From Planctomycetia bacterium (GTDB lineage Bacteria; Planctomycetota; Planctomycetia; Pirellulales; Thermoguttaceae): 64,000 bases of DNA. The stretch spans positions 54,098 through 118,097 of the forward strand of contig JAUNMR010000003.1 in assembly GCA_030537455.1 (NCBI GenBank), in the 5' to 3' direction. The notes beneath the pieces were generated by a model that was not told where the DNA came from, did not search any database, and saw only the letters and a program-made list of their open reading frames with translations. How positions within the stretch are numbered: position 1 is the stretch's first letter; each line of letters begins with the position of its first letter. Positions 26,552 to 44,600 of this stretch are shown here, one piece after another. The translations under genes were made by a program, and so were the position numbers.

Positions 26552-29500
26552 ATGACGCGCTTAGTATCCCTGACCAGATTTTTGAGTCATACTCGCCAGG
26601 AACGTTCCTCGAGTTCACGTCGAGCGCCACGCACGCGCGCGCTACGACTGGAATCGCTGGAATCGCGCGAAATGCTCAGTGTGTCCAATGTTGAATATCA
26701 AGAAATTCGCGAAGCGTACCAGGAATTCAATCTTCCCGAGAACCCCAGTGGCGTCAATATCATCGAGATCAGCGCCTCCGACCTGTCGCTGACAGCCGTT
26801 AAAAACGCGCTCGACGCCGCCGCCACAACACGACAGAACGATCTAATCGTTGTGCGCACCACCGCCGACGCCTATACCGTCGATTTCACCAAGGCGTCGG
26901 ACGAGATTAAATTTGAACAGGCGTCTGATTTCTTCGGTAAAACCACTCTTGTGGCGGTCGGTTCGCAGTCGCTGGTAATCGACGCGCACGGCTACGCGCG
27001 CGCGCTCTCCCTGGCGTCAGGTTCACTGGAACTCGGTAATGTCGCAATACGTAACGGCGCGGCACAAGAGGGGGGGAATATCTATCTTAAAGAAGAGCTT
27101 GTGCTCAAAAATTGCCAACTCGACGGCGGCGCGGCGACCTTAGGGGGCAATCTCTACAGTCTCGGCTCTCTAACCGCTTACGACAGCGTCTTTTCCGGCT
27201 CAACCTCCGGTCAGGGAATCTACGCCTACGGCGGCGCGCTCGCGTTAACCAACTGCGTCGTGAACGCAAATGCGGAAGACGGTCTGGCGATCTATCATCT
27301 TGACAATGCGCAAGTTAACGCGTCGACCTTTTCTAACAATGGCGCCGCTGGCGTGTACGACTTCCTCTCGACGCTGGAACTCAATAACGCTACGATCGTT
27401 AATAATACCGGCGCCGGACTAATGAACCTGGGCGAGGTCACGCTTGCCGACTCCATCCTGCGTGGCAACGCCGGGGGGGGCGCGGTCAACCAGAGCCACT
27501 ATGTGACCTCGAACTACTCCGCCACGCTTAAGGCGTCGCGTTGCTTCTTTGTCGACAATCAAAACGACTTAGGCGCTGGTCTCTATAATATCGGCGGCGT
27601 CGTAAACCTCGACAATTGCGCAATTTATGGCAATGTTGCTCGTCTGGGCGGCGGCGTGTATAACCAGCGTCAGGACGACTATTCTAATCGCACCGTCTTG
27701 GTCAACTGCACCGTCGCGGGCAATAGCGCTTCCTCGCAGGGCGGCGGCGTCTACGACGAAGAACGATTCGGCGACGCGATCTATAACTCTATTGTCGCCA
27801 TGAATTACGTCGGCGATCTACACGCTAACCTCGCTGGTGAACAGACCTTGCGCAATAACCTCATCGGCGGTAATCCCGAATTTGTCGTCGCGCCCTACTT
27901 TAATTTCACTACCGGAGCGCTGGCGAACCTCGAGGAAATCGACCTGCGACTAACCTCCAAAAGCGCCGCTGTTAATATCGGCGATAGCGCGCGTGTGAAC
28001 GACGACGACCTCGACCTCGCCGGCGCCCCAAGACTGGTCGGACGCAACGTCGACGCCGGCGCTTACGAATACCAAAACGACGGAACCACAGCCCCTACGC
28101 GTACTTACGTTGTCGATACCCTCGACGATTCCTTCAACCCCAACGACGGCAAAACCTCCCTGCGTGAAGCGCTCTACTGGGCAAGCGACGCCAATGCGAC
28201 CGTGACCTTCGCAAGCTCGCTCAAAGGCGAAATCAAACTCGACTCGCAACTACTGACCTCTAGCGCAATTACCATCGAGGGAAACGGTAAGGTCGCTATA
28301 AATGCGCAATCGAAGGGACGCGCGCTGCTTAATGAATCAGATCTCACATTAATCAACCTGACGCTAAAGAACGGCGCCGTCGATAGTTCCGGCGGTTTAA
28401 TCTATTCCTCCGGCACGCTGACGCTCCAAAATGCTACGCTCGACTCAGGCAAAGTCGGCGACGACGCGCTCGGCTCGCTCGTATATACCGGAGGCGCGCT
28501 AAACGCCTCAAATTCTACCTTTACCAATGGCGTCGGCGGTAGCGCGCTCTATACCCTGGACGAAACAAACCTCAGATCCTGCTCGATTGCCAATAGTTCC
28601 GGCGTCGCGCTCTACCTCAATGGCATTGCAAGTCTCGACGACGTCACAATTTCCGGTTCAAAGAGCGACGCTATCGTCAATCATTTCGGAGAACTAACAC
28701 TCAATAACGCCACGATTTCAGACAATACCGGCGTCGGTCTACGAAATATCGGCGCGGCGTCGCTTGAGAGCGTAAATGTCTTAAACAACGCTATGGGAGG
28801 TATTTATAATCAGAGCGAAGAACTGGCAAATTCCAATTTTTTGATTGCGACTCTCTACGCCTCCCATTGCGTCGTCAAGGGCAATAGCGCAGACAATGGC
28901 GCCGGGGTCTATAACCTCTATGGTCGCGCACAGTTATACGATAGCGAAATCTCCGCTAACGTCGCAGCCAACCAAGGCGGCGGTCTATTCAATGATTATC
29001 ACGAAGACTGCCCTAACCTCCTGTCGCTGGTCAATTGCACCGTCGCCGGTAATCTTGCCTCTCAAGGGGGCGGCTGTGTCTCTACGACGTCGTCGGCGTT
29101 GCTGTTCCTTTATAACAGTATTATTTCCCAGAACTTCGCGCTCGACCACGATTCAAACCTTCTCGGGGAATACTCCGAATCGATCGGTTGCTACCTCAAT
29201 GGCGCGCCCGGCTTTCGCGTAGCGCCGATCTTCGATTACCAGAATCACAGCCTAACAAACGCCGAACAATTGGACCTGCGCCTGACCCAAAACAGCCCCG
29301 CGCTGGCGATCGGTGCGTTGGAATACCTCCTCAATGACCTCGACCTCGACGCTCTGCCGCGAATCTGGAACCTCACCGTCGACGCCGGAGCCTACCAGTA
29401 TCGCGGCTCCGGTCAGACCAGCGTGTCGCCAAACTACCTCGTCGATACTCTCGAGGACTCCTTCAATCTCAACGACGACAAGAATACGCTACGCGAAGCG

Positions 29501-32500
29501 CTCTACTTCGCAAATCAAGACGGCGCGACTATTACCTTCGACCCGAAACTGAGCGGTACAATCTCGTTGAATTCTCAACTCGTTGCAAGCGCGTCGGTTA
29601 CAATCGACGGCGACGCGCGCGTTACCCTCGACGCTCAAAACGACTCCCGTATTCTTCTCGCTGACGTCGACGTGACGCTACAAAACCTCACGCTGGTCAA
29701 TGGTCGTACGCAAAGCGCGGGCGGCGCGATCTATGCCTCACACGCGCTAACACTCCTGAACGTCAACTTGTCACACAGCGGCGTCGACGCCAGCGCCAAA
29801 GGGGGCGCAATCTACTCGCTTGGCGCGCTGGAGATTACAGAATCAACCGTAACCAACGTTTCCGGGGAATTTGCGATCTACGCCAAGGGCGATATGACGC
29901 TAACGCAAACCTCTATTAGCGCTTGCGATAACGGCGCGGTCTACTGCGAAGCAAACGCTACGGTCAATAAGTCGCAAATCGCTAATAACGTCGGCGTCGG
30001 ACTTTCGCTCAATTACGGCGCGCTAACACTTGCCAATTCCACGATCTCTGACAATACCGACGTGGGGCTCGAACTTCTGGGCTCCGCCTCCCTTGTCGCC
30101 GCGAATATCCTACGCAACGGCAACGGCGGTCTACTTGTGCGTAGCGAACAAGCGCGCGACGGACAATACTACTGCTCTAACGTTCGCGTTTACAATAGTT
30201 CTATTATTGCCAATCAAAGGGACGACAGCGGCGCTGGCGTCTATAACCAGGGCGGAGCGCTGGAGTTATATAACAGCGTGATTGCGCAGAATAGCGCAAA
30301 ATGCGGCGCCGGCGTGTATAACGAATACCTCGCCGGCTGCGCCAATAAGACGCAACTAACGAACTGTACCGTCGCCGCTAATAGCGCGTCTGAACACGGC
30401 GGCGGCGTCTATTCGGTCAATAACTCCTTTGCGCTCTATCTTTATAACACGATAATCGCGCGAAACTACTCCACAGTATCCAATGCGAATCTAGAGGGAA
30501 GCGCCACGGGCTCGGTTTGCAGTCTGACCTCGGGCAACCCGGGATTCTGCGTCGATCCGATCTTCTCGGAAGACGGTAAACTTACCAATGGCGATCAGAT
30601 CGATCTAACGCTCTCGAGTCTGAGTCCGGCCATCGACGCTGGTAATAACGAGCGAGTTTACGGCGATTACGATCGTCTCGGGCATATTCGTATCTGCAAT
30701 TTAATCGTCGACGTCGGAGCCTATGAATACCAGCCGAATTACTCGACCATGGTGACGACCCTGGAGGACTCCTTCGACCTCTCCGACGGGGCAGTCTCCC
30801 TACGCGAAGCGCTCTATTATGCGCAAGACGGCGACGTTATTGTCTTTGACGACGCGCTCGCCGGCGCTATTCAATTAAACGAAACGCTTGAGGTTAACGC
30901 CAACGTTACGCTGATCGGTAATAGCGCTATTACTCTCGACGCGCAATATTCCGTTGAAATCATGCGCGTTAACGGCAGTCTCACCGTGTCAAACCTGACG
31001 TTTGCCAACGCACGAGAAGACGGACCGGGCGCCGCGATCTATAACCTCGGCGACGTAACCATTGAGAACGCGACCTTTAGAAACTGCCGAGGCACGCTTG
31101 GCGGCGCAATTTATAACGGCTCCAACGCCACTGTGACCCTGCGCAATTGCGACTTTAGCAATAATACCGCTACCGCATCGGGCGGCGCGATTTACAACGT
31201 CGGAACTTTAACGGTTATAACGTCGCGATTTGATAATAATCAGACCCAAGGCGCGGGAGGCGCGATCTATAATGCGGGTACGCTTACGCTTGTCAATTCG
31301 AGTCTTACGTCTAATATCGCTCAAACGTACGGCGGCGCGCTACTTCAAAACGGCGTGAGAATGACCAGTACCAACTGCACAATCGCCGGTAATAGCGCCA
31401 GTTCTGGCGGCGGCGTCTATGCACAGACCGGCGCGGTGAGACTCTATAACCTTATCGTCGCACAAAATACCGCCTCCAATGGCGCCGACTTACTGTGCCT
31501 CGACGCCAGTCTTGCGGCGGCTAATACGATCAGCTCCTATTCCTTCGCTAACGGTTCTAATAACGTCCTTTACGACGGTTCTCAGCCACTCTTTGCCGAC
31601 TCCAGCGCCAAGGATTATTCTCTGAGCGACAGCTCAATTGCAATCGACGCGGGCTCGTCTCAACTAGCGATTCAATCGGGTTTAGGGATCTATTCCACTG
31701 ACCTTTCGGGCGCCGTTCGTTACTTGGGCGATTCCGTTGATATCGGCGCATATGAATTTCAGCGTCCCGGCGAGAACTTCATTAGCGTCGTACAGGGTTG
31801 CGCGATTAACTTAAACGCCGCGTTAGACCGTAATCAGCGCGTTCTTTGGGACCTTTCTGGCGACCTTTCCGGTGAATTTAAGGAATACGGCGACGACTTC
31901 TGGACGACGCCGGAAGAACTAGGGTTCTCCTCCGGAGTCTATCTCCTGCAACGTCGTATACTTAACGCGCAAGGTAGTGTCGTAAGCGAAACCACGCTCA
32001 AATTGCAAGTACTCGACGCTCTGCCGTCTCTGGAGATCACAGCGCTACCGTCGCCGGACTCTCAAGTGGTTCTCTACTCGGTAATCGCCTATTTCCAAGG
32101 CGCTTGGGACTCGCGACAATGGCGCGTTAATTGGGGCGATCAAAGCGATGGGGAGATCTATCTCATCGACGCGTTTGTCTGCGGTCACTATTACCAGTCG
32201 ACCGACGCGCGTCAGACGTATCCGATCACACTAGAGCTCCTCGACGCCGACGGTTACCTGCAATATGAATTCAGCGTCGGCGCCTATCATAGCGTCCCGA
32301 CGCTGGCGAGTAACGCGCTGTCCGTGACGCCGACAGAGGAAAACGTAAGCGCTACCGTCACGACAAACTCAAACGCCATTCGTGAATTTGCCCAAGTTAC
32401 AAGCGTCCTGAACGAAAGTAATACGACCAACGCTACCGACGCGTCCGCCACTGCGACGCCCTATGCGCTGATCGACTTGGCGCTTGAAGAATTACTTGAT

Positions 32501-32815
32501 ACGGAACTGAGCTCCGCATTGACTTTAGAGTCGACCTTACGGGAGCGCCCCGTCGTCTACTCGCCAACGGACGCCCACGAGCTAGCGCTCTCGCTGACAG
32601 ACGCCGACGAGGCTGATACCGCTACGCAAACCGATAACAATAAAGAGATTGTCCAAAACTCCAACACATCCGTCGACTCGAGCCAAACGCGCGCAACGAG
32701 CGCTATAACCGTCGCTAAAGCGTCCGTAACGCAGACGGCGCGACGCATTCGTCGCAAGGATTTCCTACAGTCGCTCGACGTCCTCTTTGAATCGCTCAGC
32801 GCGGAAGATTTTTAA
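26552..32815 (+). CDS. Giant secreted parallel beta-helix protein with four CSLREA-type repeat units
   Basis: The 2087-residue protein begins with a basic N terminus and the planctomycete LEPR-XLL-like motif RALRLESLESREMLSV (about residues 29-45). Four homologous units of roughly 340-460 residues follow. Units 2-4 each open with a CSLREA-like segment (DTLDDSFNPNDGKTSLREAL and variants). All contain short right-handed beta-helix turns (GGAIYNAGTLTL, NCTVAGNSAS) and close with a VDAGAYEYQ-like sequence. After residue 1740 comes a PKD-like region, then a Ser/Thr/Ala-rich tail ending in a basic Leu/Phe motif. It is probably a cell-surface protein that binds or acts on polysaccharides, or an adhesin. 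No catalytic residues were identified. AAGGAG precedes the ATG. Confidence 0.85.
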   Translation: MTRLVSLTRFLSHTRQERSSSSRRAPRTRALRLESLESREMLSVSNVEYQEIREAYQEFNLPENPSGVNIIEISASDLSLTAVKNALDAAATTRQNDLIVVRTTADAYTVDFTKASDEIKFEQASDFFGKTTLVAVGSQSLVIDAHGYARALSLASGSLELGNVAIRNGAAQEGGNIYLKEELVLKNCQLDGGAATLGGNLYSLGSLTAYDSVFSGSTSGQGIYAYGGALALTNCVVNANAEDGLAIYHLDNAQVNASTFSNNGAAGVYDFLSTLELNNATIVNNTGAGLMNLGEVTLADSILRGNAGGGAVNQSHYVTSNYSATLKASRCFFVDNQNDLGAGLYNIGGVVNLDNCAIYGNVARLGGGVYNQRQDDYSNRTVLVNCTVAGNSASSQGGGVYDEERFGDAIYNSIVAMNYVGDLHANLAGEQTLRNNLIGGNPEFVVAPYFNFTTGALANLEEIDLRLTSKSAAVNIGDSARVNDDDLDLAGAPRLVGRNVDAGAYEYQNDGTTAPTRTYVVDTLDDSFNPNDGKTSLREALYWASDANATVTFASSLKGEIKLDSQLLTSSAITIEGNGKVAINAQSKGRALLNESDLTLINLTLKNGAVDSSGGLIYSSGTLTLQNATLDSGKVGDDALGSLVYTGGALNASNSTFTNGVGGSALYTLDETNLRSCSIANSSGVALYLNGIASLDDVTISGSKSDAIVNHFGELTLNNATISDNTGVGLRNIGAASLESVNVLNNAMGGIYNQSEELANSNFLIATLYASHCVVKGNSADNGAGVYNLYGRAQLYDSEISANVAANQGGGLFNDYHEDCPNLLSLVNCTVAGNLASQGGGCVSTTSSALLFLYNSIISQNFALDHDSNLLGEYSESIGCYLNGAPGFRVAPIFDYQNHSLTNAEQLDLRLTQNSPALAIGALEYLLNDLDLDALPRIWNLTVDAGAYQYRGSGQTSVSPNYLVDTLEDSFNLNDDKNTLREALYFANQDGATITFDPKLSGTISLNSQLVASASVTIDGDARVTLDAQNDSRILLADVDVTLQNLTLVNGRTQSAGGAIYASHALTLLNVNLSHSGVDASAKGGAIYSLGALEITESTVTNVSGEFAIYAKGDMTLTQTSISACDNGAVYCEANATVNKSQIANNVGVGLSLNYGALTLANSTISDNTDVGLELLGSASLVAANILRNGNGGLLVRSEQARDGQYYCSNVRVYNSSIIANQRDDSGAGVYNQGGALELYNSVIAQNSAKCGAGVYNEYLAGCANKTQLTNCTVAANSASEHGGGVYSVNNSFALYLYNTIIARNYSTVSNANLEGSATGSVCSLTSGNPGFCVDPIFSEDGKLTNGDQIDLTLSSLSPAIDAGNNERVYGDYDRLGHIRICNLIVDVGAYEYQPNYSTMVTTLEDSFDLSDGAVSLREALYYAQDGDVIVFDDALAGAIQLNETLEVNANVTLIGNSAITLDAQYSVEIMRVNGSLTVSNLTFANAREDGPGAAIYNLGDVTIENATFRNCRGTLGGAIYNGSNATVTLRNCDFSNNTATASGGAIYNVGTLTVITSRFDNNQTQGAGGAIYNAGTLTLVNSSLTSNIAQTYGGALLQNGVRMTSTNCTIAGNSASSGGGVYAQTGAVRLYNLIVAQNTASNGADLLCLDASLAAANTISSYSFANGSNNVLYDGSQPLFADSSAKDYSLSDSSIAIDAGSSQLAIQSGLGIYSTDLSGAVRYLGDSVDIGAYEFQRPGENFISVVQGCAINLNAALDRNQRVLWDLSGDLSGEFKEYGDDFWTTPEELGFSSGVYLLQRRILNAQGSVVSETTLKLQVLDALPSLEITALPSPDSQVVLYSVIAYFQGAWDSRQWRVNWGDQSDGEIYLIDAFVCGHYYQSTDARQTYPITLELLDADGYLQYEFSVGAYHSVPTLASNALSVTPTEENVSATVTTNSNAIREFAQVTSVLNESNTTNATDASATATPYALIDLALEELLDTELSSALTLESTLRERPVVYSPTDAHELALSLTDADEADTATQTDNNKEIVQNSNTSVDSSQTRATSAITVAKASVTQTARRIRRKDFLQSLDVLFESLSAEDF
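26700..31770 (+). repeat. Four long coding repeats in the beta-helix gene
   Basis: Approximate units are 26700-28090, 28105-29430, 29437-30735 and 30749-31770. Units 2-4 share the SLREAL opening, and all share the order of turn motifs and the DAGAYEY-like end. They have diverged at nucleotide level, so the duplications are old. Confidence 0.75.
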
Positions 32816-33023: not shown

Positions 33024-35237
33024 TCAGGGGCTTTTACGAAGAGACAGTTCTCCCATTGCTGCGTCGTATTGTCTTTTTGCCTCAAGCGCTTCAAGTAAAC
33101 GAGTAGCGACGTCTTCGAGGGTTAAAGAGCGCCCCATCGCGAATGTTCCCAAATGCAAGCCTGTTCCTCCGATGTTGTAGATGCTACGCGATCGCGTATA
33201 TCCAAATTGCATGAGCAGATATTCGCGCATTCCCTCTATTCGAAGGCGTCTATCTGCAGGAGATAGATTGACCAAATCAAATTCGTTGATTCGACTCAAA
33301 TCTAAATCAACTTGCTTCCTAAAAGAGAGTAGAAGCTCATTGAACACATAACGTTTTCTATAGGTCAAACTCTTACATGGAGGGGGTAAGAGCGGTGATT
33401 GTAAATCAGTATAAAGCTCCCATGCCACAACGACATAGAGAACGTGGGGCAATACGTTCGTACAGAACTGTAGGATCTCCTCGTCTGTACACCCCATGTT
33501 CAAAAAGGGATTGTGATCGCCAAGGAGGTATTGAAACGTCCACACGTCATAGCGCCAGTTTTTATTCCAAGTTTTACGCCATGCATTTAAATCGGATTCA
33601 ACGGGATTGTTTCTTTTCTTCAAAACTAAGAATTGTCTACTTTCTGGAAAGACGACGTCTTTATGTTCTTCCATAACTATCGACTTATTTAGCGCTTCGC
33701 TAAGTCGATGAAATGGCACGCTTTGCCTATCAAATATTGTGTCATTATTTAACCAATAATAGGTTCGAGCTATAAATAACAACGCTTTCTCTTTTGACGA
33801 TAACTCCTCAAGATGATCAAGGGCGTCGTTGAGCTCTTCCACCGAAGTCTGTTCGAACCTATGGCAAAATTCAAAGAACGGTTGGTATAGATTATAAGTC
33901 AAATCTAGACAACGTTCGTGTTCGCTTTCTCCTTTCAAAACATATATGTTTGGACGTCGAGGCGCTGTGATACGTTTAGGTCGCAAGAGCGCTTGCTTCA
34001 AGCTAAAGAATTTTATTTCTGGCGCGATATTATGCAGAAACTCCAAAAATGGCTCGTCGGTATTGGAGTCCTCGCTTACGAGCGGCGCTTGTGTCGGAAC
34101 GTCGCAAGTCTCGGGATTTGCGCCTGATTCAATTCTCTCTGAATTGATCGCGTTAAGCAGGGACGTAGCAATCGCGCCTAACGTAATGCAATCTGGCGAA
34201 CTGTCTCCACAAAGACCTCCTTGTAACACAAAACCATTCAAACGAGTATAGACGAATTGAGTCCTTAGAAACTCCCGCATAATAATAACTTCGTAAAAGG
34301 ACTCAATGTAATTGGCGTCTGAGAGAACGTCCCGGGAACTTTCGGCGAGGTTATGTAATAGCAGCCTTTTCGGTGATAGTCTTTTAACCTCGTCAATCGA
34401 GTCTTTCATGACGCTTTTATCGTCAAAGCTAATACGAAGTTCATAAGACATAGGTTCATTATGTAAAGACTCCAAAAGAGTTAATGTATACAGAAAACGA
34501 ACTGACGCTTTGTCTAGCTCATATATTGAGCGCCTTTTATTATCTCCCGGCACGGGGCTTAGGGGACTTGTTTCTATATTTTTTTCATGGAGAATTGGAT
34601 TGCCTCGGAGCATTCCAGTCACACAATCTGTGTAATGTGCTACGGTTTGGAATGCGCGTACCTGCATACGAAAATCCTCTTCCCAAGACTCGGCGTCAGC
34701 TTCCTTAGTCTTTTGAACGCAGACCGCTTGACTATATCGATAGGAATTCAATAGATCGATAAATTGAGCGAGTTGGCTCTCATCGAAGGGTTCCCCGAGC
34801 GGGACGTCTTTATCTGGATAAAACTCGTGAATAACGTCAAGGTTCAAAGGCGAAGAGACGTTACAATGGTAGACATAAAGCGCAATTAACGTCAATCCCT
34901 TCTCTTTCGCAGACATGTCGTCTATTTTAGCCAAACACTCTAGCACGTCCTCCTTGGACGATAGTTCGGCCGCTAACGCCATACCATACAAGAGTCGAAA
35001 ACGAGGATAGGTAACGTCATAGCGAAGTTCCCAGTCTGAAAACGCTTCTGACGAATTATTCAGAATCACGTCGATGGGTAGCGCTTCCAGTTCGCTAGCA
35101 GTCCTTTGGATCGTTTGTAAAAGGGACGGTTCAGCAGGATCCGGTTGTGACGGCGTCGTTTGTCCCTGCGTGAAAGCTGCGCTAAGCAGATATACGCTCA
35201 ACGACTTGATAATTAGTAGAGGCAAGCGTCTGATCAT
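33024..35237 (-). CDS. Secreted protein of unknown function with two tandem homologous halves
   Basis: No known family was recognised. The ATG at 35237 is chosen over 35279 because it starts a signal peptide (MIRRLPLLIIKSLSV...GQT) and follows AAGGAGAG. The 737-residue protein contains two similar alpha-helical units, about 60-390 and 440-735. Compare CLAKIDDMSAKEKGLTLIAL with ALDHLEELSSKEKALLFIAR, and MREFLRTQFVYTR with MREYLLMQFGYTR; each unit ends in a TLxxxATxLLxAxxxxR helix. It lies 38 bases downstream of the transglutaminase-like gene, in one operon. It may be a partner, substrate or inhibitor of that protein; this is inferred from position only. Confidence 0.65.
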   Translation of the reverse strand: MIRRLPLLIIKSLSVYLLSAAFTQGQTTPSQPDPAEPSLLQTIQRTASELEALPIDVILNNSSEAFSDWELRYDVTYPRFRLLYGMALAAELSSKEDVLECLAKIDDMSAKEKGLTLIALYVYHCNVSSPLNLDVIHEFYPDKDVPLGEPFDESQLAQFIDLLNSYRYSQAVCVQKTKEADAESWEEDFRMQVRAFQTVAHYTDCVTGMLRGNPILHEKNIETSPLSPVPGDNKRRSIYELDKASVRFLYTLTLLESLHNEPMSYELRISFDDKSVMKDSIDEVKRLSPKRLLLHNLAESSRDVLSDANYIESFYEVIIMREFLRTQFVYTRLNGFVLQGGLCGDSSPDCITLGAIATSLLNAINSERIESGANPETCDVPTQAPLVSEDSNTDEPFLEFLHNIAPEIKFFSLKQALLRPKRITAPRRPNIYVLKGESEHERCLDLTYNLYQPFFEFCHRFEQTSVEELNDALDHLEELSSKEKALLFIARTYYWLNNDTIFDRQSVPFHRLSEALNKSIVMEEHKDVVFPESRQFLVLKKRNNPVESDLNAWRKTWNKNWRYDVWTFQYLLGDHNPFLNMGCTDEEILQFCTNVLPHVLYVVVAWELYTDLQSPLLPPPCKSLTYRKRYVFNELLLSFRKQVDLDLSRINEFDLVNLSPADRRLRIEGMREYLLMQFGYTRSRSIYNIGGTGLHLGTFAMGRSLTLEDVATRLLEALEAKRQYDAAMGELSLRKSP

Positions 35238-35275
35238 TGTGTCTCTCCTTGAGAAGAACGTTATCGTAAAGCCTA

Positions 35276-37945
35276 TCACAGTTCCGTATATATCGTAAAG
35301 ACGGAAGTTGGAATTGATCCATTGTCAAACAGTGGTTCATATGTTTGACCATAGGCGCCGTACGAAGAGACTTCTTCCCAGGTTCCATAGCTGTGTAAGT
35401 AAGAGACGAATACCGATAGGGCATTATTATAGTCCCCATAGCATACCGCATAAGCAGGATCATAGACGACGCCGTCATATTTGATTAATGCATGATCACC
35501 CCAAATATTTTCGCGTGGCTGTCCTCCGCCTTGTCCAGTTAAACCTGGATCAACTTTGAAAGCATAATGCAGCGTGTCAAGGACGCTTACCCCAACTTTA
35601 TCAACCGCTAGACCTTGGATTCTGAATAACGAATATGCAAAATCTTGCCAAGCGCCACACGTACCGTCTGTGTTATACAATAACGATTCCACTTTAAAGC
35701 CATAGTAAGGATCATTGTCGGGATCATTTACCGAGTTTATGACTATTTCACGAGCCAACGAAGGGCTTTGATCCACAAGATATGACGTGGGAGCGGATGG
35801 GGAGGTCAACTTTGTTACCTCAAGATACTGATACAAGTCTTGTCTGATTGCGTCGCTTGATGCGTCTTGACCGTAATATGTCAACAAATCGCCATTATGA
35901 ACGATAGAGCCGTTAATAAGCTGGACTTTGTGAATATACTTTGATTCGATTATGTTCCAAAGAGCTTGAAACACACCGGCGTCGGTCGTAACAACAGACG
36001 AATACGCTGCTACGCATCCCAAGTGTACTAGCGACAAATAATTCTGAGATCCGGACAGCGGCGCCTTGTAGGTAACGTACAGAGGATTAGCGCTCGTGCC
36101 CATATCGCCCAATTCGTCACGATCTTCATCGTCATATACTCTAAACTCCCAGTCGATTTCAGAACTTAGATCGTAATAAGCCTGCGAGCGACCGAAGATT
36201 GACGCGAAGCTTGAGTTTAATTCAACGACACAGGAACTATTTACGCTAACCGTTTGCCAATCGGAATATACAACGCTACCGTTTAGACGATTCCACTTCA
36301 TGCGTACTTCGTAGTTTTGCGTGGAGTCTCGCGTACCGTCTACGGTAACCTGGCATTTCATTGTGGCGTCGCTGGAATACGCCACTGGCAATGTTTGCAT
36401 TGAATCGGTTTCATACCAGTGTGTAGAGTTTTTCCAGTTTGTGTCAAAGGCGTCCACGGAGTCTGAAACCAAATCCAAATTATCCAGGAACTTAACCGTG
36501 GAAACGCGAAGTACGTCGTTGTCCTTGATTCTGACTTGAACGGATTCAGAAGAAACGTTATAGGCGATGTAAGAAAGCGGATAAGAAGTCGCGGTGGTAA
36601 CCGAGATATCGATCGTTTCGTACAGGCGTTCGACTATTGAGTCGTCTTTTGCTTTGATTGTTAGCGTTGCATAGAGTTCATTTTCAGGGATTCGTACCGT
36701 GAGAACGCCGTTACTATTGGGCGACAAGAGGACGCGTGAACCGTCGGCGTTGTTTAGGTAGACGTTGTAATCGGCGCTGTTATCGGCGACCGACGCGGAA
36801 CCGGTAAAACTTAGCGTTGCGTCGATAGCGTAATGTTTGTCCTCGCTGTATCCGGAACCAGCGTCAACGCGCGCAACTGTGAATGACGCTTCGGTTTGTT
36901 CCTCTTCCGTAAGTAACGTATACCCAAGTTCGGAGTCGTCAACCACGGGATAGACGGCAATTAACCAGTCGTCGTTATCAACGATGGCGGCAGTTACAGA
37001 GGTATTGATATTATTGAAGGAGTAAAGAGTCTCCGGTTCGAAATCATAGTACGGAGCGCCCATGGAAAGCGATACCGTCTCGAGCGACTCAGTAATTCTA
37101 TCGTCCACCGGTACAATGTAGAGCGTAACGGCGCTACCGGAGTGGACGTAGCCGTTATAAACGCTCGTAGAGCCGCCGTAATAGGGAATATAGACGTAAT
37201 AGTCGCTAGCCGACGCCGTCCCGCCTAGGGTTATCGTCGCCATATACCCGTCGGGCAGAGCAGGCAGCGTCACGGCGAGATAGTCGCTTGAAGAGGGATC
37301 GCCAAGACTGCCAGGAAAACTCAACACAGAACCGTGACCTTCATGTAACGCGTAGTCGACGTCTTCTGGCGTGGAGGCGTCAGTATCGCTACAAAATCGG
37401 GTAATCTGGAATTCAAGATTCCACGTAGGCGTCGTCCGCGTCGCCCCGGGGTCGTTCGGTTCATCGACGTCGTCGGAATCAAGATACATCTGGTTCTTTT
37501 GAGCGAACGAAAGCGATATGTAAGGTTCTCCTAGAACAAAGACGCCCTGGCTGGCAAAGAGTTCGTCCGTATCCAGGTCAATGAGAGATTGTGAATCGCA
37601 GAGGTCTTGTTCTTTCAGAGAAATAATCGAGTCAGATTCAGCGTTTGCATTGTGTAATGAATTAAGAAAGGGGGCGGCGTATAGGGGTAAAGCCTGCTCT
37701 GCTTCGACCGCCTGAGCGAGTTGGCGCATGAGAGGTTGTTCATCGCTTGGCGGTTCACAGAACACGAAGCCAGAGGCGTCGAGCATTTCACGCGCCTCCA
37801 ACCCCTCAAGACGCAGACGACGCGTTCCAGGCGGAGTCGACGCCATTCTATTACGACCTTGAATTGGAAACTCCGACTTGACGAAGTTGAGCGCCGTATT
37901 GAAGATTTTGACCACGAGAGTCTGTTTGTACGATAGGGATTTCAT
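35276..37945 (-). CDS. Secreted Calx-beta protein with C-terminal transglutaminase-like domain
   Basis: A basic N terminus carries the LEPR-XLL-like motif RRLRLEGLEAREMLDAS. The middle (about residues 150-480) has at least two Calx-beta-like domains (SVADNSADYNVYLNN and TIKAKDDSIVERLYE segments). The C-terminal 200 residues look like a transglutaminase/papain-type core: Cys763 in GTCGAWQDF, His818 in WGDHALIKYDG and Asp829 in VVYDPAY, in the order and spacing of that superfamily. It could be a surface protease, amidase or cross-linking enzyme. AAGGAC precedes the ATG. The duplicated-unit protein follows in the same operon. The activity is inferred from the triad alone. Confidence 0.75.
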   Translation of the reverse strand: MKSLSYKQTLVVKIFNTALNFVKSEFPIQGRNRMASTPPGTRRLRLEGLEAREMLDASGFVFCEPPSDEQPLMRQLAQAVEAEQALPLYAAPFLNSLHNANAESDSIISLKEQDLCDSQSLIDLDTDELFASQGVFVLGEPYISLSFAQKNQMYLDSDDVDEPNDPGATRTTPTWNLEFQITRFCSDTDASTPEDVDYALHEGHGSVLSFPGSLGDPSSSDYLAVTLPALPDGYMATITLGGTASASDYYVYIPYYGGSTSVYNGYVHSGSAVTLYIVPVDDRITESLETVSLSMGAPYYDFEPETLYSFNNINTSVTAAIVDNDDWLIAVYPVVDDSELGYTLLTEEEQTEASFTVARVDAGSGYSEDKHYAIDATLSFTGSASVADNSADYNVYLNNADGSRVLLSPNSNGVLTVRIPENELYATLTIKAKDDSIVERLYETIDISVTTATSYPLSYIAYNVSSESVQVRIKDNDVLRVSTVKFLDNLDLVSDSVDAFDTNWKNSTHWYETDSMQTLPVAYSSDATMKCQVTVDGTRDSTQNYEVRMKWNRLNGSVVYSDWQTVSVNSSCVVELNSSFASIFGRSQAYYDLSSEIDWEFRVYDDEDRDELGDMGTSANPLYVTYKAPLSGSQNYLSLVHLGCVAAYSSVVTTDAGVFQALWNIIESKYIHKVQLINGSIVHNGDLLTYYGQDASSDAIRQDLYQYLEVTKLTSPSAPTSYLVDQSPSLAREIVINSVNDPDNDPYYGFKVESLLYNTDGTCGAWQDFAYSLFRIQGLAVDKVGVSVLDTLHYAFKVDPGLTGQGGGQPRENIWGDHALIKYDGVVYDPAYAVCYGDYNNALSVFVSYLHSYGTWEEVSSYGAYGQTYEPLFDNGSIPTSVFTIYTEL

Positions 37946-38536: not shown

Positions 38537-39943
38537 TTAGCAATTCGCGGAATGACAACGCGCTTTGGAGCGTCGCGAGATTTTAACGTCCGGCTCCTCG
38601 CACGGTTCGGCGCGTCGTACGTACACATAAAAGCAATACGCCGCCGCAAGAGTCGCCAACCACGACGCCGGGTAGGTCAAAAAGAGTGACGCCACCGTAT
38701 GAAACCGCGGGATTTGAAAGAGCGTTCCGATCCAAATCAAACGCAAGCCACATGCGCCGACCAGCGCGATTATGGTCGGCGTGACGTTATAGCCCAGCCC
38801 GCGAATCACGCCGATTAGACAGTCCATCAAGCCACAAATCGCATAAAAGCAGCAGACCATAAACAAACGCGTCATACCCGCGTCGATCACCTCGGAACGA
38901 TGGTCGAATAAATTCAACAACATCGGTCCAAAGAGGTACGCTAAATTGCCCGCAATCACGCCAACGGTAAATGTGCTTGCACAACAGCACAAGCAGACCT
39001 TGCCGACACGATCGTAACGCTTCGCCCCTACGTTCTGGCTGGTAAATGTCAACGCGCACTGGGTAAAGGCGTTCATACTCATCCAAACAAACGCCTCAAT
39101 ACTAGCGGCCGCGGCGCTGCCCGCCATGACAATCGGACCGAACCCGTTCACCGCCGATTGAATCACTACGTTCGACAAGGAAAAAACAACCCCCTGGACG
39201 CCCGCGGGCACGCCTACGCGCAAAATCTCCCACACAATCGCAGTCTCAAGGCGTAACTTCCGCCATTGCAGACGAAAGGCGTCCGTCTCGCGCGCCAACG
39301 CCCACAAAACCAAAAACGCCGATAAATACTGCGACAGTACCGTCGCTAACGCCACGCCCTTAACGTCCAATTTGTACGACACGACAAAGACAACGTTAAG
39401 AACCACGTTCACTGCGCCCGCTATGATAATATAGATCAGCGGTCGTTGCGTGTCGCCCTTGGCGCGAAGAATCGCCGCGCCAAAGTTGTACAACGTCACC
39501 GCGACCATGCCATAGGCGCACACGCGCAAATATTGCGTCGCTAAATCCAACGCTTCGATTGGCGTCTGCATCCATATGAGAATCGTACGCGCGCCATAGT
39601 ACGCCGTAGCAAACATAAACACGCCGCCCAAGGCGCCCAAGACAATCGAAGAATGCACCGTGCGCGCCACACGGTCGTAATCGGTCGCGCCCCAGTAATA
39701 CGCAACCAGTTTATTAGCGCCCAGCGACAATCCCAAAAAAACTGTCGTGATTAAATTCATTAGCGCAAAAGTTGAACCGACCGCCGCTAAAGAGTGTTCG
39801 CTCCCAAAGTTGCCAACCACGACAATATCCGCGGCGTTAAAGAGCAACTGCAAAATACTCGATAAAATCAGCGGAATCGCCATCTGTAATAGTCGCGGTA
39901 GAATAGCGCCCGACGTCATCTCGAGTTCTCTTCCTCGCGCCAT
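38537..39943 (-). CDS. MATE-family multidrug/metabolite efflux transporter (second copy)
   Basis: The protein exports small molecules in exchange for Na+ or H+ across the inner membrane. It has twelve hydrophobic segments in two homologous halves, with the family sequence LQLLFNAADIVVVGNFGSE in helix 1 and a parallel SNVVIQSAVNGFGPIVMAGSAAA region in the second half. The length of 468 fits NorM-like proteins. The ATG at 39943 lies two bases after the preceding stop and AGAGG is placed for it; a GTG at 39952 would overlap the upstream gene. It is a paralogue of the adjacent transporter. Confidence 0.9.
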   Translation of the reverse strand: MARGRELEMTSGAILPRLLQMAIPLILSSILQLLFNAADIVVVGNFGSEHSLAAVGSTFALMNLITTVFLGLSLGANKLVAYYWGATDYDRVARTVHSSIVLGALGGVFMFATAYYGARTILIWMQTPIEALDLATQYLRVCAYGMVAVTLYNFGAAILRAKGDTQRPLIYIIIAGAVNVVLNVVFVVSYKLDVKGVALATVLSQYLSAFLVLWALARETDAFRLQWRKLRLETAIVWEILRVGVPAGVQGVVFSLSNVVIQSAVNGFGPIVMAGSAAAASIEAFVWMSMNAFTQCALTFTSQNVGAKRYDRVGKVCLCCCASTFTVGVIAGNLAYLFGPMLLNLFDHRSEVIDAGMTRLFMVCCFYAICGLMDCLIGVIRGLGYNVTPTIIALVGACGLRLIWIGTLFQIPRFHTVASLFLTYPASWLATLAAAYCFYVYVRRAEPCEEPDVKISRRSKARCHSANC

Positions 39944-39945
39944 AA

Positions 39946-41334
39946 TTAACACGTCCTCTCTTCAAGTTCGTCTACCTTAGGGTAGCCGCGTCGCGCGATT
40001 ATATACACAACGCCATGCGCCGCGCCTGTGACAACCCACGTTATGGGATATATCATAAGAAGCGCCGAAAAGGTATGAAACTCCGGAAGTTGAAAGCCCG
40101 TGGCGATCCACGCCACGCGCAATACACACGCGCCAACAAGCGACGTAACCGCCGGCGTCACGTTATAACCGAGACCGCGAACGATATTCGCCAATGAGTC
40201 CATGAAGCCGCAGAGCGCATAAAAGCCGCTAACCCAAAACAGTCGCGTCATACCAGCGCTGATCACTTCCGCACGACTGTCGTAAAGGCTCAGTAGGAAA
40301 GAACCATAAAGGTTCACGACCAATCCTAACGTCAACCCGACCGCCATCGCGCAGCAAATAGACGTCGCCGCTATACGATTGAGTCGACTGTACTTGCGCG
40401 CGCCCAATGCCTGACTGGTAAAGGTCAGCGAACACTCCGCAAAGGAGTACATTGTCACCCATATAAAGTCTTCTATATTTTCCGCCGCCGCGCTGCCCGC
40501 CATGACAATCGGACCGAACCCGTTAATTCCAATCTGAACCGCCACGTTGGCAATCGAAAAGAGCGACGCCTGAAGCCCCGCGGGTACGCCGCGACGAAGC
40601 AACGCGCCCAAAATGCGCCAATCCATTCGGAATTTCCGCCATTCCACTCGTGTGGCGCAAGGCTGACGCATGAGTCGACGAAAGATTAAAATCGCCGATA
40701 AATACTGCGACGTCACCGTCGCGAGCGCCACGCCCAAAACGTCCCAATGCAAGACCGCGACAAGAATGAAATTCAAAATCACGTTCAATACGCCTGCGAC
40801 GAGCAAGTAATACATCGGACGCTTGGTATCGCCGTACGCGCGCATAATCGCCGCGCCGAAATTGTAGATCAGCGCCGCAAACGCTCCGAAAAAATAGACT
40901 CGTAAGTAGGTCGTAGACAACCCGAGAGTCTCCTCCGGAACAGAGCATATCCGCAAAAGCGTCGGCGCCAGCGGCACGCCCAGCGCAACTACAATTACGC
41001 CGGCTAGCGCCGCCAAAACCAAGGACGCATGAGTCGCTCGCGCGCACAACGACTCATCGCGCGCGCCAAGATAGTACGCCACGAGAATATTAACGCCTAC
41101 CGAAAGGCCAAAGAAAAAGTTTAATACTAAATTGACCAGTGGTATCGTCGACCCGACAGCCGCAAGGGAATATTCGCTTGCACAATTCCCCAAAACGACC
41201 ATGTCCGCGGCATTGAATAGCAACTGCAAAATACGTGACGCCGCCTGAGGCGCCGCCATGGCTAAAAATGCCGGTAAAACCGCGCCCGACGTTATTTCAA
41301 CGCCCGACAATGTACGTTTAGATTCTCGTGTCAT
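39946..41334 (-). CDS. MATE-family multidrug/metabolite efflux transporter (first copy)
   Basis: This is the upstream member of a tandem pair, with twelve hydrophobic segments and 462 residues. It shares ILQLLFNAADMVVLGNCASE, GINGFGPIVMAGSAAAE and GLGYNVTPA with the downstream copy, so the pair arose by duplication. The two stop/start codons are two bases apart, indicating co-translation. Whether they act separately or together is unknown. Substrate cannot be predicted. Confidence 0.92.
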   Translation of the reverse strand: MTRESKRTLSGVEITSGAVLPAFLAMAAPQAASRILQLLFNAADMVVLGNCASEYSLAAVGSTIPLVNLVLNFFFGLSVGVNILVAYYLGARDESLCARATHASLVLAALAGVIVVALGVPLAPTLLRICSVPEETLGLSTTYLRVYFFGAFAALIYNFGAAIMRAYGDTKRPMYYLLVAGVLNVILNFILVAVLHWDVLGVALATVTSQYLSAILIFRRLMRQPCATRVEWRKFRMDWRILGALLRRGVPAGLQASLFSIANVAVQIGINGFGPIVMAGSAAAENIEDFIWVTMYSFAECSLTFTSQALGARKYSRLNRIAATSICCAMAVGLTLGLVVNLYGSFLLSLYDSRAEVISAGMTRLFWVSGFYALCGFMDSLANIVRGLGYNVTPAVTSLVGACVLRVAWIATGFQLPEFHTFSALLMIYPITWVVTGAAHGVVYIIARRGYPKVDELEERTC

Positions 41335-41644: not shown

Positions 41645-44600
41645 TCATTCAGTCAGGGTAACTTGCGGTTCGCTCTGAATCGTGACCGGTCCAAAGAGTC
41701 CGGAGTCGGTCGACCCCTTGTACCCCGAGGGAATATTGCGATAGAAATTCGACAAGGTGTTGTACGTCTCAACCTCGAGGATATTCTCACCGGAGCACAA
41801 CGCGTCGGTGACGTCGACGTTCCAGGGCTGAGCGACCAAATCGCCGACCGCCTGACCATTGAGCTTCACGCGACAGCTCGCGCTCACCCGTGTGAGTCGC
41901 AGGATCGCACGACCCTGGAAGCGCTCCTGACCGTCCCAGGTAAAGCGTTTGATATACCGCACGCCGCCGGAGTAATTCGCCAGTACGCCTCGATCGTTCC
42001 AATTGCCCAGTGGCATAACGCCGCGTTGACACTCAATTTCAATCGGTTCTGGCAAAATTGCCCCGCCCGTTGCGCTACCTTTGGTCGTAAACAGCAGTTC
42101 AATTGTCGCCGCCTCGCGAATAGGCTCTTGGAATCTCACGAACTCCATCGTCACGGGTCGTTGCGCAAGTGTCGCGCCGATCGGCGGTTGTTCGTTCGCG
42201 CCGTCGTTCTGCGCCGGCACGCCGGTGCGTACGCTGTCCCAGGCATAAAAATCCTTGCCGTCGATTACGCGCGTTTCACGCGTCGCTTCGACCTCTTGAC
42301 CATTCACACAGACCTTCTCCACGCGCCCATAGCAGGGTATCTCTAATGAGGCGACGCCTGGCGCGCAAAGGAATTTCAACGCTTCACGACGCGGCTGAGA
42401 CCCGCGCGCTTGGAAATCAAGAACGCCCGGCACGTCGAACCAGATCGTCGACAGCGCAGTACGTGGTGAGCTTACAAAGTCGGGCGTCTCTGAATTCAGA
42501 CCGGTCGACAGCCCGTTAAAGGCGCCGGAATCCTGACCGTCGGCGTGAATCAAGCGCGAGGAGGTTCTCTCGGCGCTAGTGCGAGCGACAAAACACAGCG
42601 CGCGTCGCCCCGCGGAATCGTAACGACACAATACAGGCGTGGTCTGACCGTCTTGACGAAGCGTCAAATTGATCGCGTTATGCTCCAAATCCAGCGCGCG
42701 ACCGTCAAGATACAGCGCATTCGGCGCCCCGGCGCTTACGTAGAGATCGACCAGAACGTCCGACGCCTCCGCCGCTGCGTCGCGCGCGATCACCCCAACG
42801 GTTGTCCAAAGATAATAGATCGAACCGTGCTCCTCCTCGCCAAAGACCGTCTCATTAAAACCGTTGGTACGTTTGCCCAGCGCGATAAAGCGCGAGTCAA
42901 TGCGCTCCTTCAGACCATGATAGCCCTGACGACCCGGCGCGTTCTCCACGCCCCAGCGCCACGAGAACGAATAAGGTCGCCACGCGTATTCCTGGTCGCC
43001 CAGTATGAACTTATCGCCCGACTCGACCTTCTGGAGCTTCGCCAATCGCGACTCTAGCTCCGCGCAATCGACGTCCTTCGGGAACGGTCCGAGACGCCAG
43101 AACTTCAGACCAAAGTCACACAGTTCCGACGCGCCCTCCGTAGAATAGTGAACCGCGCCCTGTGCGTCTACCAGCCCGGTCGCAACGCGTTGCGCCTCAA
43201 CGCCCAACTTGCGATCAACCGCCGGAAGACGGAAATCTCCCCAACGATTGTCAAGCGTCGGAATAAACTCCGTTTCCCAATCGCCGCTTAGCGTTAGCGT
43301 CGTGCCGTTCTGGGACGGTTTGCCACGTAACGTTACGCTCTTACCGTCGCGAGTACTGAGCGTTAATTCCGCCGTAGCGCCATTGGCGGCGTCCTCCGAC
43401 GAAAGATAACCGCGCGCAGTCCATCGCCCCTGGGCGTCATGCGTTAGTTCTGTCAGTTCCGCGAGATTCGTCTGGAGCCCCTTGAGCGGCTCGCGCGTCG
43501 ATTCCGCGGCGCTGAAAAGAATCAACCCCGCCGTGCCGGTCGCAAATGGCCAACGTAGACGCATACACGCCGCGCCGTCAGACGTTGTGCTTTCGTAGGC
43601 GTCGGGAATTTCGCGAACCTCGCCCGTCCAGGCGTCGAGCGCCAACGCACGACCGCGTGAACGGAACGTCATAAGCTCGCCCTGCTTCGCGCGTGATAAA
43701 AAGTACAGATCGCCGTCGGACGTCGCGCGCTTCATGTGTCCCAGACCTTGACCGGCGGAATCGGTCGTCACGCAGGGATATTGAGTAAGTTCTCGCTCGA
43801 ACCGTTCCCAAAGCGTAGCGTCGCTATTCTGCGCGACCGAACCGGCGATTTCGCTATTAACGCCGGTTCGATGCAAAACGTGAACATTGCCCACGTCGAC
43901 GGGAGCGAGGGCGTCGTAACCCTCGGCGTTACGGCGCGCGTTTGCGTCAAACGCAACCTTGGAATATCTCAATGACTCAGACGACATAACCGTTTTATCG
44001 TCAAGAGTTAGCGCAAAGAAGACTCCAGCGGATCCGCGACGCGGCGCGTCTTGGTCGTGGCAATCCAGTGTGATAACGTCTCCGTCGTGCAACGTGAGCG
44101 CTCCATGCCAACCGTCGCTGTAATTAACGTTCTCACAGATTAAACGCCCGTTAACATACAACTTACCGTCGTTGTCACAATAGAAGAGCGCCTTGTATTC
44201 CTTCGGCTCCTTCCCCAGTCCCGAGGCGACCCACTTGAACCAAACGTCTTGAATCTCCTGCTCAGACCATACCCAACGTCCTTGGAATCCACCGGGATAC
44301 TCGCGCAAATAGGACGGCGTAGCTTTTGAACCTAAAACAACTTGCTCCTGTGAGTCGGCGCCTTTGTGGTCAATTTCTTTTCCCAAATAAACGCCGCGAC
44401 CGCCGGAAAGATGGCGCGTTTCACTCGAAGTCGTACCGGCGGTAACGCCGAAAATCTCTTGGATTGCCTCTTTAAGCAACGGATCGTCGGTTCCGATGCG
44501 ATCGGAGCCTTCCGGTAGCGCGTCGAGAGCAATAACCACGCCGCCATGACGATACAACTCCAGCGCCTTGCTGAGCGTCGACCAGTGTATCGCGCGAATA

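What the first reader, a model, noticed from the sequence alone, without database searches (positions are those of the whole stretch)
33024..37945. Secreted two-gene operon: Calx-beta/transglutaminase-like protein plus a protein with duplicated unknown domains
The first protein ends in a Cys763/His818/Asp829 triad of transglutaminase/papain type after Calx-beta-like domains and a LEPR-XLL-like sorting motif. The second, 38 bases on, is exported and made of two homologous helical units of unknown family. A surface enzyme with a dedicated partner is plausible and I know of no described system like it.
Basis: partly seen in the sequence, partly recalled or inferred. Interest (0 to 1): 0.62.

Follow-up and report, generated by a model that had tools for sequence, protein, structure and literature searches.

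The report
Polymorphic surface enzyme with exported partner
A ruminant-gut-type planctomycete carries a surface protein whose swappable enzyme tip (here a transglutaminase-like cysteine enzyme) always comes with its own exported partner protein, so the pair looks like one cassette of a toxin-and-antidote-like repertoire rather than a lone enzyme.

Summary
Protein A (889 aa) has an N-terminal sorting motif, Calx-beta-like domains and a C-terminal Cys763/His818/Asp829 domain. The triad is invariant in 11 homologues, and the domain matches the transglutaminase core in profile-profile comparison, but no Pfam model. Protein B, 38 bases downstream, is exported and internally duplicated. The pair is multi-copy in this genome. 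In close relatives every transglutaminase-like tip found (13/13) is followed directly by B, across three genera. The same N-terminal module carries other tips in sister species: class-3 lipase, protein-arginine deiminase, zinc protease and others. Most of these are followed at once by a different exported partner, and never by B (0/12). Two neighbouring genes in one relative are DNA-identical for 630 bases and then end in different enzymes. Headless tips, B arrays, B-only genomes and a locus with two orphan partners also occur. Best reading: a polymorphic-toxin-like system built on planctomycete surface proteins, with an extracytoplasmic enzyme tip and an exported cognate immunity or inhibitor protein. 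The tip-plus-partner cassette is well supported. Toxicity, substrate and neutralisation are inferred.

The parts
35276..37945 (-). Gene A: modular surface protein, 889 aa
   Evidence: ORF; paralogues at C65, C41 (two) and a fragment at C80 in the same genome
37778..37825 (-). A residues 41-56 (TRRLRLEGLEAREMLD), planctomycete sorting motif (LEPR-XLL / PF07595 type)
   Evidence: Sub-threshold PF07595 match at residues 42-55; 10 of 15 homologues match
36536..37945 (-). A residues 1-470: N-module with Calx-beta-like domains, shared with proteins that carry other tips
   Evidence: Family search; Calx-beta in 5 of 15 homologues
36101..36535 (-). A residues 471-615: beta-rich domain between the Calx-beta-like region and the tip
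   Evidence: Predicted strands, part of it at pLDDT 70-80; conserved HW...LPVAY motif
35279..36100 (-). A residues 616-889: transglutaminase-like tip
   Evidence: Tip border: headless copy L119 begins at the equivalent of G616; synonymous change-point at about residue 617 against the C65 paralogue; profile match to the transglutaminase core
35657..35659 (-). Codon of Cys763 (predicted nucleophile, N-end of predicted helix 763-776)
   Evidence: Invariant; helix in the AF2 model
35492..35494 (-). Codon of His818
   Evidence: Invariant; predicted strand
35459..35461 (-). Codon of Asp829
   Evidence: Invariant; predicted strand
33024..35237 (-). Gene B: exported helical partner, 737 aa, start ATG
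   Evidence: 13 of 13 close TG tips have a B directly downstream
35160..35237 (-). B residues 1-26: Sec-type signal peptide (by eye and hydropathy)
   Evidence: MIRRLPLLIIKSLSVYLLSAAFTQGQ; hydropathy
34044..35159 (-). B unit 1 (residues 27-398)
   Evidence: Internal duplication; single-unit relatives of about 350-450 aa
33027..34043 (-). B unit 2 (residues 399-737)
   Evidence: Internal duplication

Best explanation
A and B are one tip-plus-partner cassette of a polymorphic-toxin-like surface system of Thermoguttaceae-type planctomycetes. A is exported and held at or outside the cell surface by its N-module, and its C-terminal tip (residues 616-889) is a papain/transglutaminase-fold cysteine enzyme that acts outside the cytoplasm on proteins of neighbouring cells (cross-linking, deamidation or cleavage). 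B is co-expressed and exported by Sec, and binds the cognate tip to protect the producer and its kin. Related strains keep the N-module and change the tip together with its partner by recombination. Shown by sequence: gene pairing, conserved triad, modular tips, cassette exchange, orphan tips and partners, export signals on B. Inferred: surface display, enzymatic activity, toxicity, target, and neutralisation by B.
For: Triad invariant in 11 A proteins and kept in most distant phylum members. Tip versus transglutaminase-core alignment: hhalign P 1-2e-5, probability 77-82%, against 0.2-0.3% for NlpC/P60 and reversed controls. B directly downstream of 13/13 close TG tips in three genera, and of 0/12 N-module genes with other tips (Fisher 1.9e-7, uncorrected for relatedness). 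The same N-module carries PAD (PF03068, 6.9e-39), Lipase_3 (7.5e-6) and a zinc-protease-like HEIGH tip. Partners differ by tip: ankyrin proteins with two of the lipase tips, one 369-417 aa family with the zincin-type tips. L249: two neighbouring N-module genes exactly identical for 630 nt, then lipase versus PAD tips. Headless tip between two B genes (L119) and tip remnant plus intact B (L017). Five B genes in tandem upstream of an A-B pair (L061). Six genomes with B but no detected tip. Orphan B beside an orphan zincin partner in L068. B is the fastest-evolving part (mean identity 0.21, against 0.38 for the tip).
Against: No toxicity, binding or expression data exist. No known delivery system (RHS, filamentous haemagglutinin, T6/T7SS) is attached. 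Most described immunity proteins are cytoplasmic (PMC3482391), whereas B and most other partners look exported. Tip-B distance correlation is weak (r 0.35, p 0.01) and no stronger than N-module-B. Distant TG-like tips (G034, G126, G127, other classes) lack B. MAG incompleteness could create false orphans.
Confidence: 0.6

Rival explanations
1. A family of modular surface or secreted enzymes for nutrition or matrix remodelling; each partner is a dedicated chaperone, foldase or zymogen-type inhibitor that helps its enzyme mature. No conflict is involved.
For: Strict tip-partner pairing; partners exported; gut habitat of relatives; lipase-specific foldases are a known kind of partner (background knowledge).
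Against: B occurs in arrays, in genomes without a detected tip, and beside another orphan partner, where a chaperone would have no client. Variable tips on one N-module, including PAD, are unusual for nutrition.
Confidence: 0.2
2. Same architecture, but the tips act on eukaryotic targets (rumen ciliates, fungi, host mucus or epithelium), with partners guarding the producer.
For: PAD, transglutaminase, lipase and protease tips all modify proteins or lipids; papain-like and lipase tips also occur in the surface effectors of Amoebophilus (PMC3482391); named relatives come from ruminant guts.
Against: B arrays and orphan partners fit kin competition better; nothing tested points to a eukaryotic target.
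Confidence: 0.12
3. B is the substrate of A: A cross-links or trims B to build a surface layer or matrix.
For: A transglutaminase-type enzyme next to an exported protein present in many copies.
Against: Lipase, PAD and zincin tips also have their own partners in the same position, so the slot is not a substrate slot in general.
Confidence: 0.05
4. Chance neighbours without functional link.
For: None found beyond the small genome sample.
Against: 13/13 pairing across three genera with fast-diverging sequences.
Confidence: 0.02

Closest known systems
Polymorphic toxin systems with Tox-TGase (Zhang et al. 2012, PMC3482391)
   Same: C-terminal enzymatic tip with Cys-His-Asp; conserved N-terminus; partner gene directly downstream; orphan cassettes and polyimmunity-like loci; ankyrin immunity also known there, including in planctomycetes
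   Different: N-module of planctomycete sorting motif plus Calx-beta-like domains (the word Calx is absent from the held text of that paper); no RHS or filamentous haemagglutinin; partners nearly all carry export signals; tip not matched by any Pfam model; B is a new family
MafB toxins of Neisseria and APD1/APD2 effectors of Amoebophilus (PMC3482391 section 37)
   Same: Lineage-specific conserved N-terminal module with polymorphic C-termini, proposed to anchor the proteins to the surface
   Different: Different N-module; MafB has the MafA lipoprotein upstream; [quoted passage not shown]
Transglutaminase-like superfamily (PF01841 Transglut_core)
   Same: GxC at the start of a helix, then His and Asp on strands; profile-profile match
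   Different: Not detected by Pfam; His-Asp spacing 11 instead of about 15-16; tip preceded by a conserved beta-rich domain
T6SS periplasmic effector/immunity pairs such as VgrG2b (PMC6899460; title, abstract and term counts only)
   Same: Extracytoplasmic toxin; periplasmic immunity is known for such effectors
   Different: Delivered by a T6SS spike; no T6SS link was seen here

Membership tests
Polymorphic toxin system | Conserved N-terminal trafficking or anchoring region | tested here: met
   N-module found over most of its length in about 20 proteins of the genus
Polymorphic toxin system | Different C-terminal enzymatic domains on the same N-terminus | tested here: met
   TG-like, Lipase_3, PAD, zincin, LRAT-like tips; L249 pair identical for 630 nt then divergent
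Polymorphic toxin system | Cognate partner gene immediately downstream, matched to the tip | tested here: met
   partner families follow tip families. L208, L076 and L077 have no clear partner.
Polymorphic toxin system | Standalone tip cassettes and arrays of partner genes | tested here: met
   L119, L017; L061 array; L068
Polymorphic toxin system | Tip is toxic and the partner neutralises it | not testable with these tools
   needs experiment
Polymorphic toxin system | Known secretion or delivery signature (T5/T6/T7SS, RHS, PVC) | tested here: not met
   Pfam and NCBIfam scans show none; the Sec/T2SS route is not excluded, and one homologue, L063, has a plain signal peptide by eye
Transglutaminase-like superfamily | Cys-His-Asp triad | tested here: met
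Transglutaminase-like superfamily | Profile similarity to the core | tested here: met
   hhalign P 1-2e-5 with controls; the confident alignment covers the Cys helix only
Transglutaminase-like superfamily | Pfam PF01841 score above cut-off | tested here: not met
   no match at E<=1 in 11 members
Transglutaminase-like superfamily | Fold with the triad clustered in space | tested here: inconclusive
   AF2 mean pLDDT 50; local order helix (Cys), strand (His), strand (Asp) is right; best enzyme fold hit is transglutaminase 3 at E 0.18; coordinates not available for distances
Calx-beta domain | Pfam PF03160 match | tested here: inconclusive
   none in A itself; 5 of 15 homologues, best E 2e-5
LEPR-XLL / Planc_extracel sorting motif | Model score above cut-off | tested here: not met
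   14.8-15.8 bits against 25.5; the motif is still readable

The most novel reading that the evidence does not exclude
Gut planctomycetes use their lineage-specific surface LEPR/Calx-beta proteins as a toxin platform whose conflict is wholly extracytoplasmic. Enzyme tips (transglutaminase-like, arginine deiminase, lipase, protease) are exchanged together with dedicated exported immunity proteins, in cassettes often followed by a GT4 glycosyltransferase.
Probability: 0.5. Interest if true: 0.75.

Novelty: new variant of a known kind. Interest (0 to 1): 0.62.

Why it matters
Literature searches for interbacterial toxin/immunity systems in planctomycetes returned only papers mentioning the phylum in passing, apart from the 2012 survey. 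If right, this gives a function to a class of planctomycete surface proteins known mainly by their sorting motif, adds an unnamed transglutaminase-like tip and a new all-helical partner family, and makes testable predictions about which partner guards against which tip.

Tried and rejected
Pfam, NCBIfam and PDB sequence searches gave nothing for the tip or B. Fold search with the AF2 models was not decisive: the A model (pLDDT 50) gave integrin and Asf1 beta-sandwich hits, with transglutaminase 3 at rank 33; the B model (pLDDT 53, nearly all helical) gave nothing. The viral contig scan found no relatives. Mirror-tree comparison does not single out tip-B coevolution. A sharp C53/C65 recombination break at residue 616 is only moderately supported: fourfold sites 0.43 before against 0.66 after, p 0.0013, and the change-point statistic barely exceeds the permutation maximum. 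The substrate model for B was set aside because other tips have unrelated partners in the same slot.

Full report
Observation. A is 35276-37945 (-), 889 aa. B runs from the ATG at 35237 to 33024, 737 aa, 38 bases after A. Cys763, His818 and Asp829 are invariant across 11 homologues of the C-terminal region, including one from another genus. B begins with a signal peptide and consists of two homologous units (score 92, shuffles 36 +/- 5, maximum 54). B relatives with a single unit are common.

What the tip is. Neither the tip nor B matches Pfam, NCBIfam or PDB sequences. An alignment of 25 tips from across the phylum was compared with an alignment of genuine PF01841 domains from relatives. The match has P 1-2e-5 and probability 77-82%, with the catalytic Cys helix in register; NlpC/P60 and reversed controls give 0.2-0.3%. 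The His-Asp hairpin is shorter than usual (11 against about 15-16 residues). The AF2 model is weak overall (pLDDT 50), but places Cys at the start of a helix and His and Asp on following strands. Transglutaminase 3 appears among the weak fold hits (E 0.18). The tip is therefore best called transglutaminase-like; the reaction is not known.

The pair is a family. The same genome has further A-B sets: C65 (A-B-B, the two B copies 99% identical), C41 (A-B-A-B) and C80 (tip remnant plus intact B). In relatives, named ones being Thermoguttaceae bacteria from goat omasum and water-deer rectum, every close TG tip is followed by B on the same strand: 13 of 13 in three genera. B was not found in any of 391 other genomes sampled across the phylum. 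More distant TG-like tips have other genes downstream, which resemble each other within G126/G127 and within G409.

The larger pattern. The N-module of A (sorting motif plus Calx-beta-like domains) is shared by proteins with other C-termini in sister species. They include class-3 lipase (L247, 26.3 bits, over the cut-off), protein-arginine deiminase (L249, PF03068 6.9e-39), a HEIGHAFTLNH zinc-protease-like tip (L251) and LRAT-like tips (L205, L208, L248, by eye). Most are followed within about 15-130 bases by a gene whose product starts with a hydrophobic export-type segment, and none by B. The partner family tracks the tip: ankyrin proteins after two of the lipase tips, and one 369-417 aa family after the L250/L251 tips. 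Exceptions are L208, L076 and L077, with no clear partner, and L207, whose partner's start is uncertain.

Exchange. In L249 two neighbouring N-module genes are exactly identical for their first 630 bases and then end in lipase and PAD tips with different partners. The TG-tip protein of G017 shares 87-88% identity over its first 60 residues with proteins of G008 and G010 that carry zincin-type tips. A headless TG tip lies between two B genes in G095, starting at the equivalent of residue 616. Against the C65 paralogue, synonymous divergence rises at about residue 617, and B shares the deeper divergence (fourfold-site test p 0.0013). This last point is suggestive only.

Orphans. Five B genes stand in tandem before an A-B pair in L061. 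Six genomes have B but no detected tip. L068 has an orphan B close to an orphan partner of the zincin tip. Such partner-only loci are expected of immunity genes and not of chaperones, though incomplete MAGs weaken the point.

Mechanism. I infer that A is displayed outside the cytoplasm, that the tip modifies or cleaves proteins of neighbours, and that B, exported with it, blocks the tip in the producer and its kin. Export of the partner fits a tip that acts outside the cytoplasm. Zhang et al. note that nearly all known immunity proteins are cytoplasmic, except where the toxin works at the surface (PMC3482391). Sequence shows the cassette logic; it does not show toxicity.

Comparison. The design is that of polymorphic toxin systems, in which Tox-TGase and ankyrin immunity are known (PMC3482391). 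The carrier, the partner family and the near-universal export signals on the partners set it apart, so I call it a new variant of a known kind. A GT4 glycosyltransferase follows or flanks many of these cassettes in relatives but is not beside the window's pair; its role is open.

Noticed in passing
L249:13139-17170 (-) (relative G005): A strong protein-arginine deiminase domain (PF03068, 6.9e-39) as the tip of a bacterial surface protein, followed by an exported 482-aa protein.
   Followed up: partly
L067, L061, L205, L207, L208, L247, L249, L213-L215: A conserved GT4-type glycosyltransferase (LFSSxHNYLDxxSGAAxSTR) beside tip-partner cassettes in many relatives, absent beside the window's pair.
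   Followed up: partly
window 26552-32815 (+): 2087-aa LEPR-type surface protein with right-handed beta-helix, choice-of-anchor Q and POMP-like repeats, convergent with the A-B operon.
   Followed up: no
window 41645-46384 (-): 1579-aa protein with a GH106 alpha-L-rhamnosidase domain near two MATE-like transporter genes (38537-41334, identified by eye).
   Followed up: no
G000 C33 end (L252:6611-6905) and C41 start (L016:2-1276): Probably the two halves of one A gene split by an assembly break, since N-terminus and C-terminus match neighbouring copies.
   Followed up: no
G000 C78 (L211:4323-5716) and C29 (L018:2067-2394): Decayed remnants of A and B, suggesting repeated gain and loss of the cassette in this genome.
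   Followed up: partly
L128:6782-10548 (relative G409, another lineage of the phylum): Distant TG-like tip followed by two tandem paralogous genes with possible signal peptides, unrelated to B.
   Followed up: no
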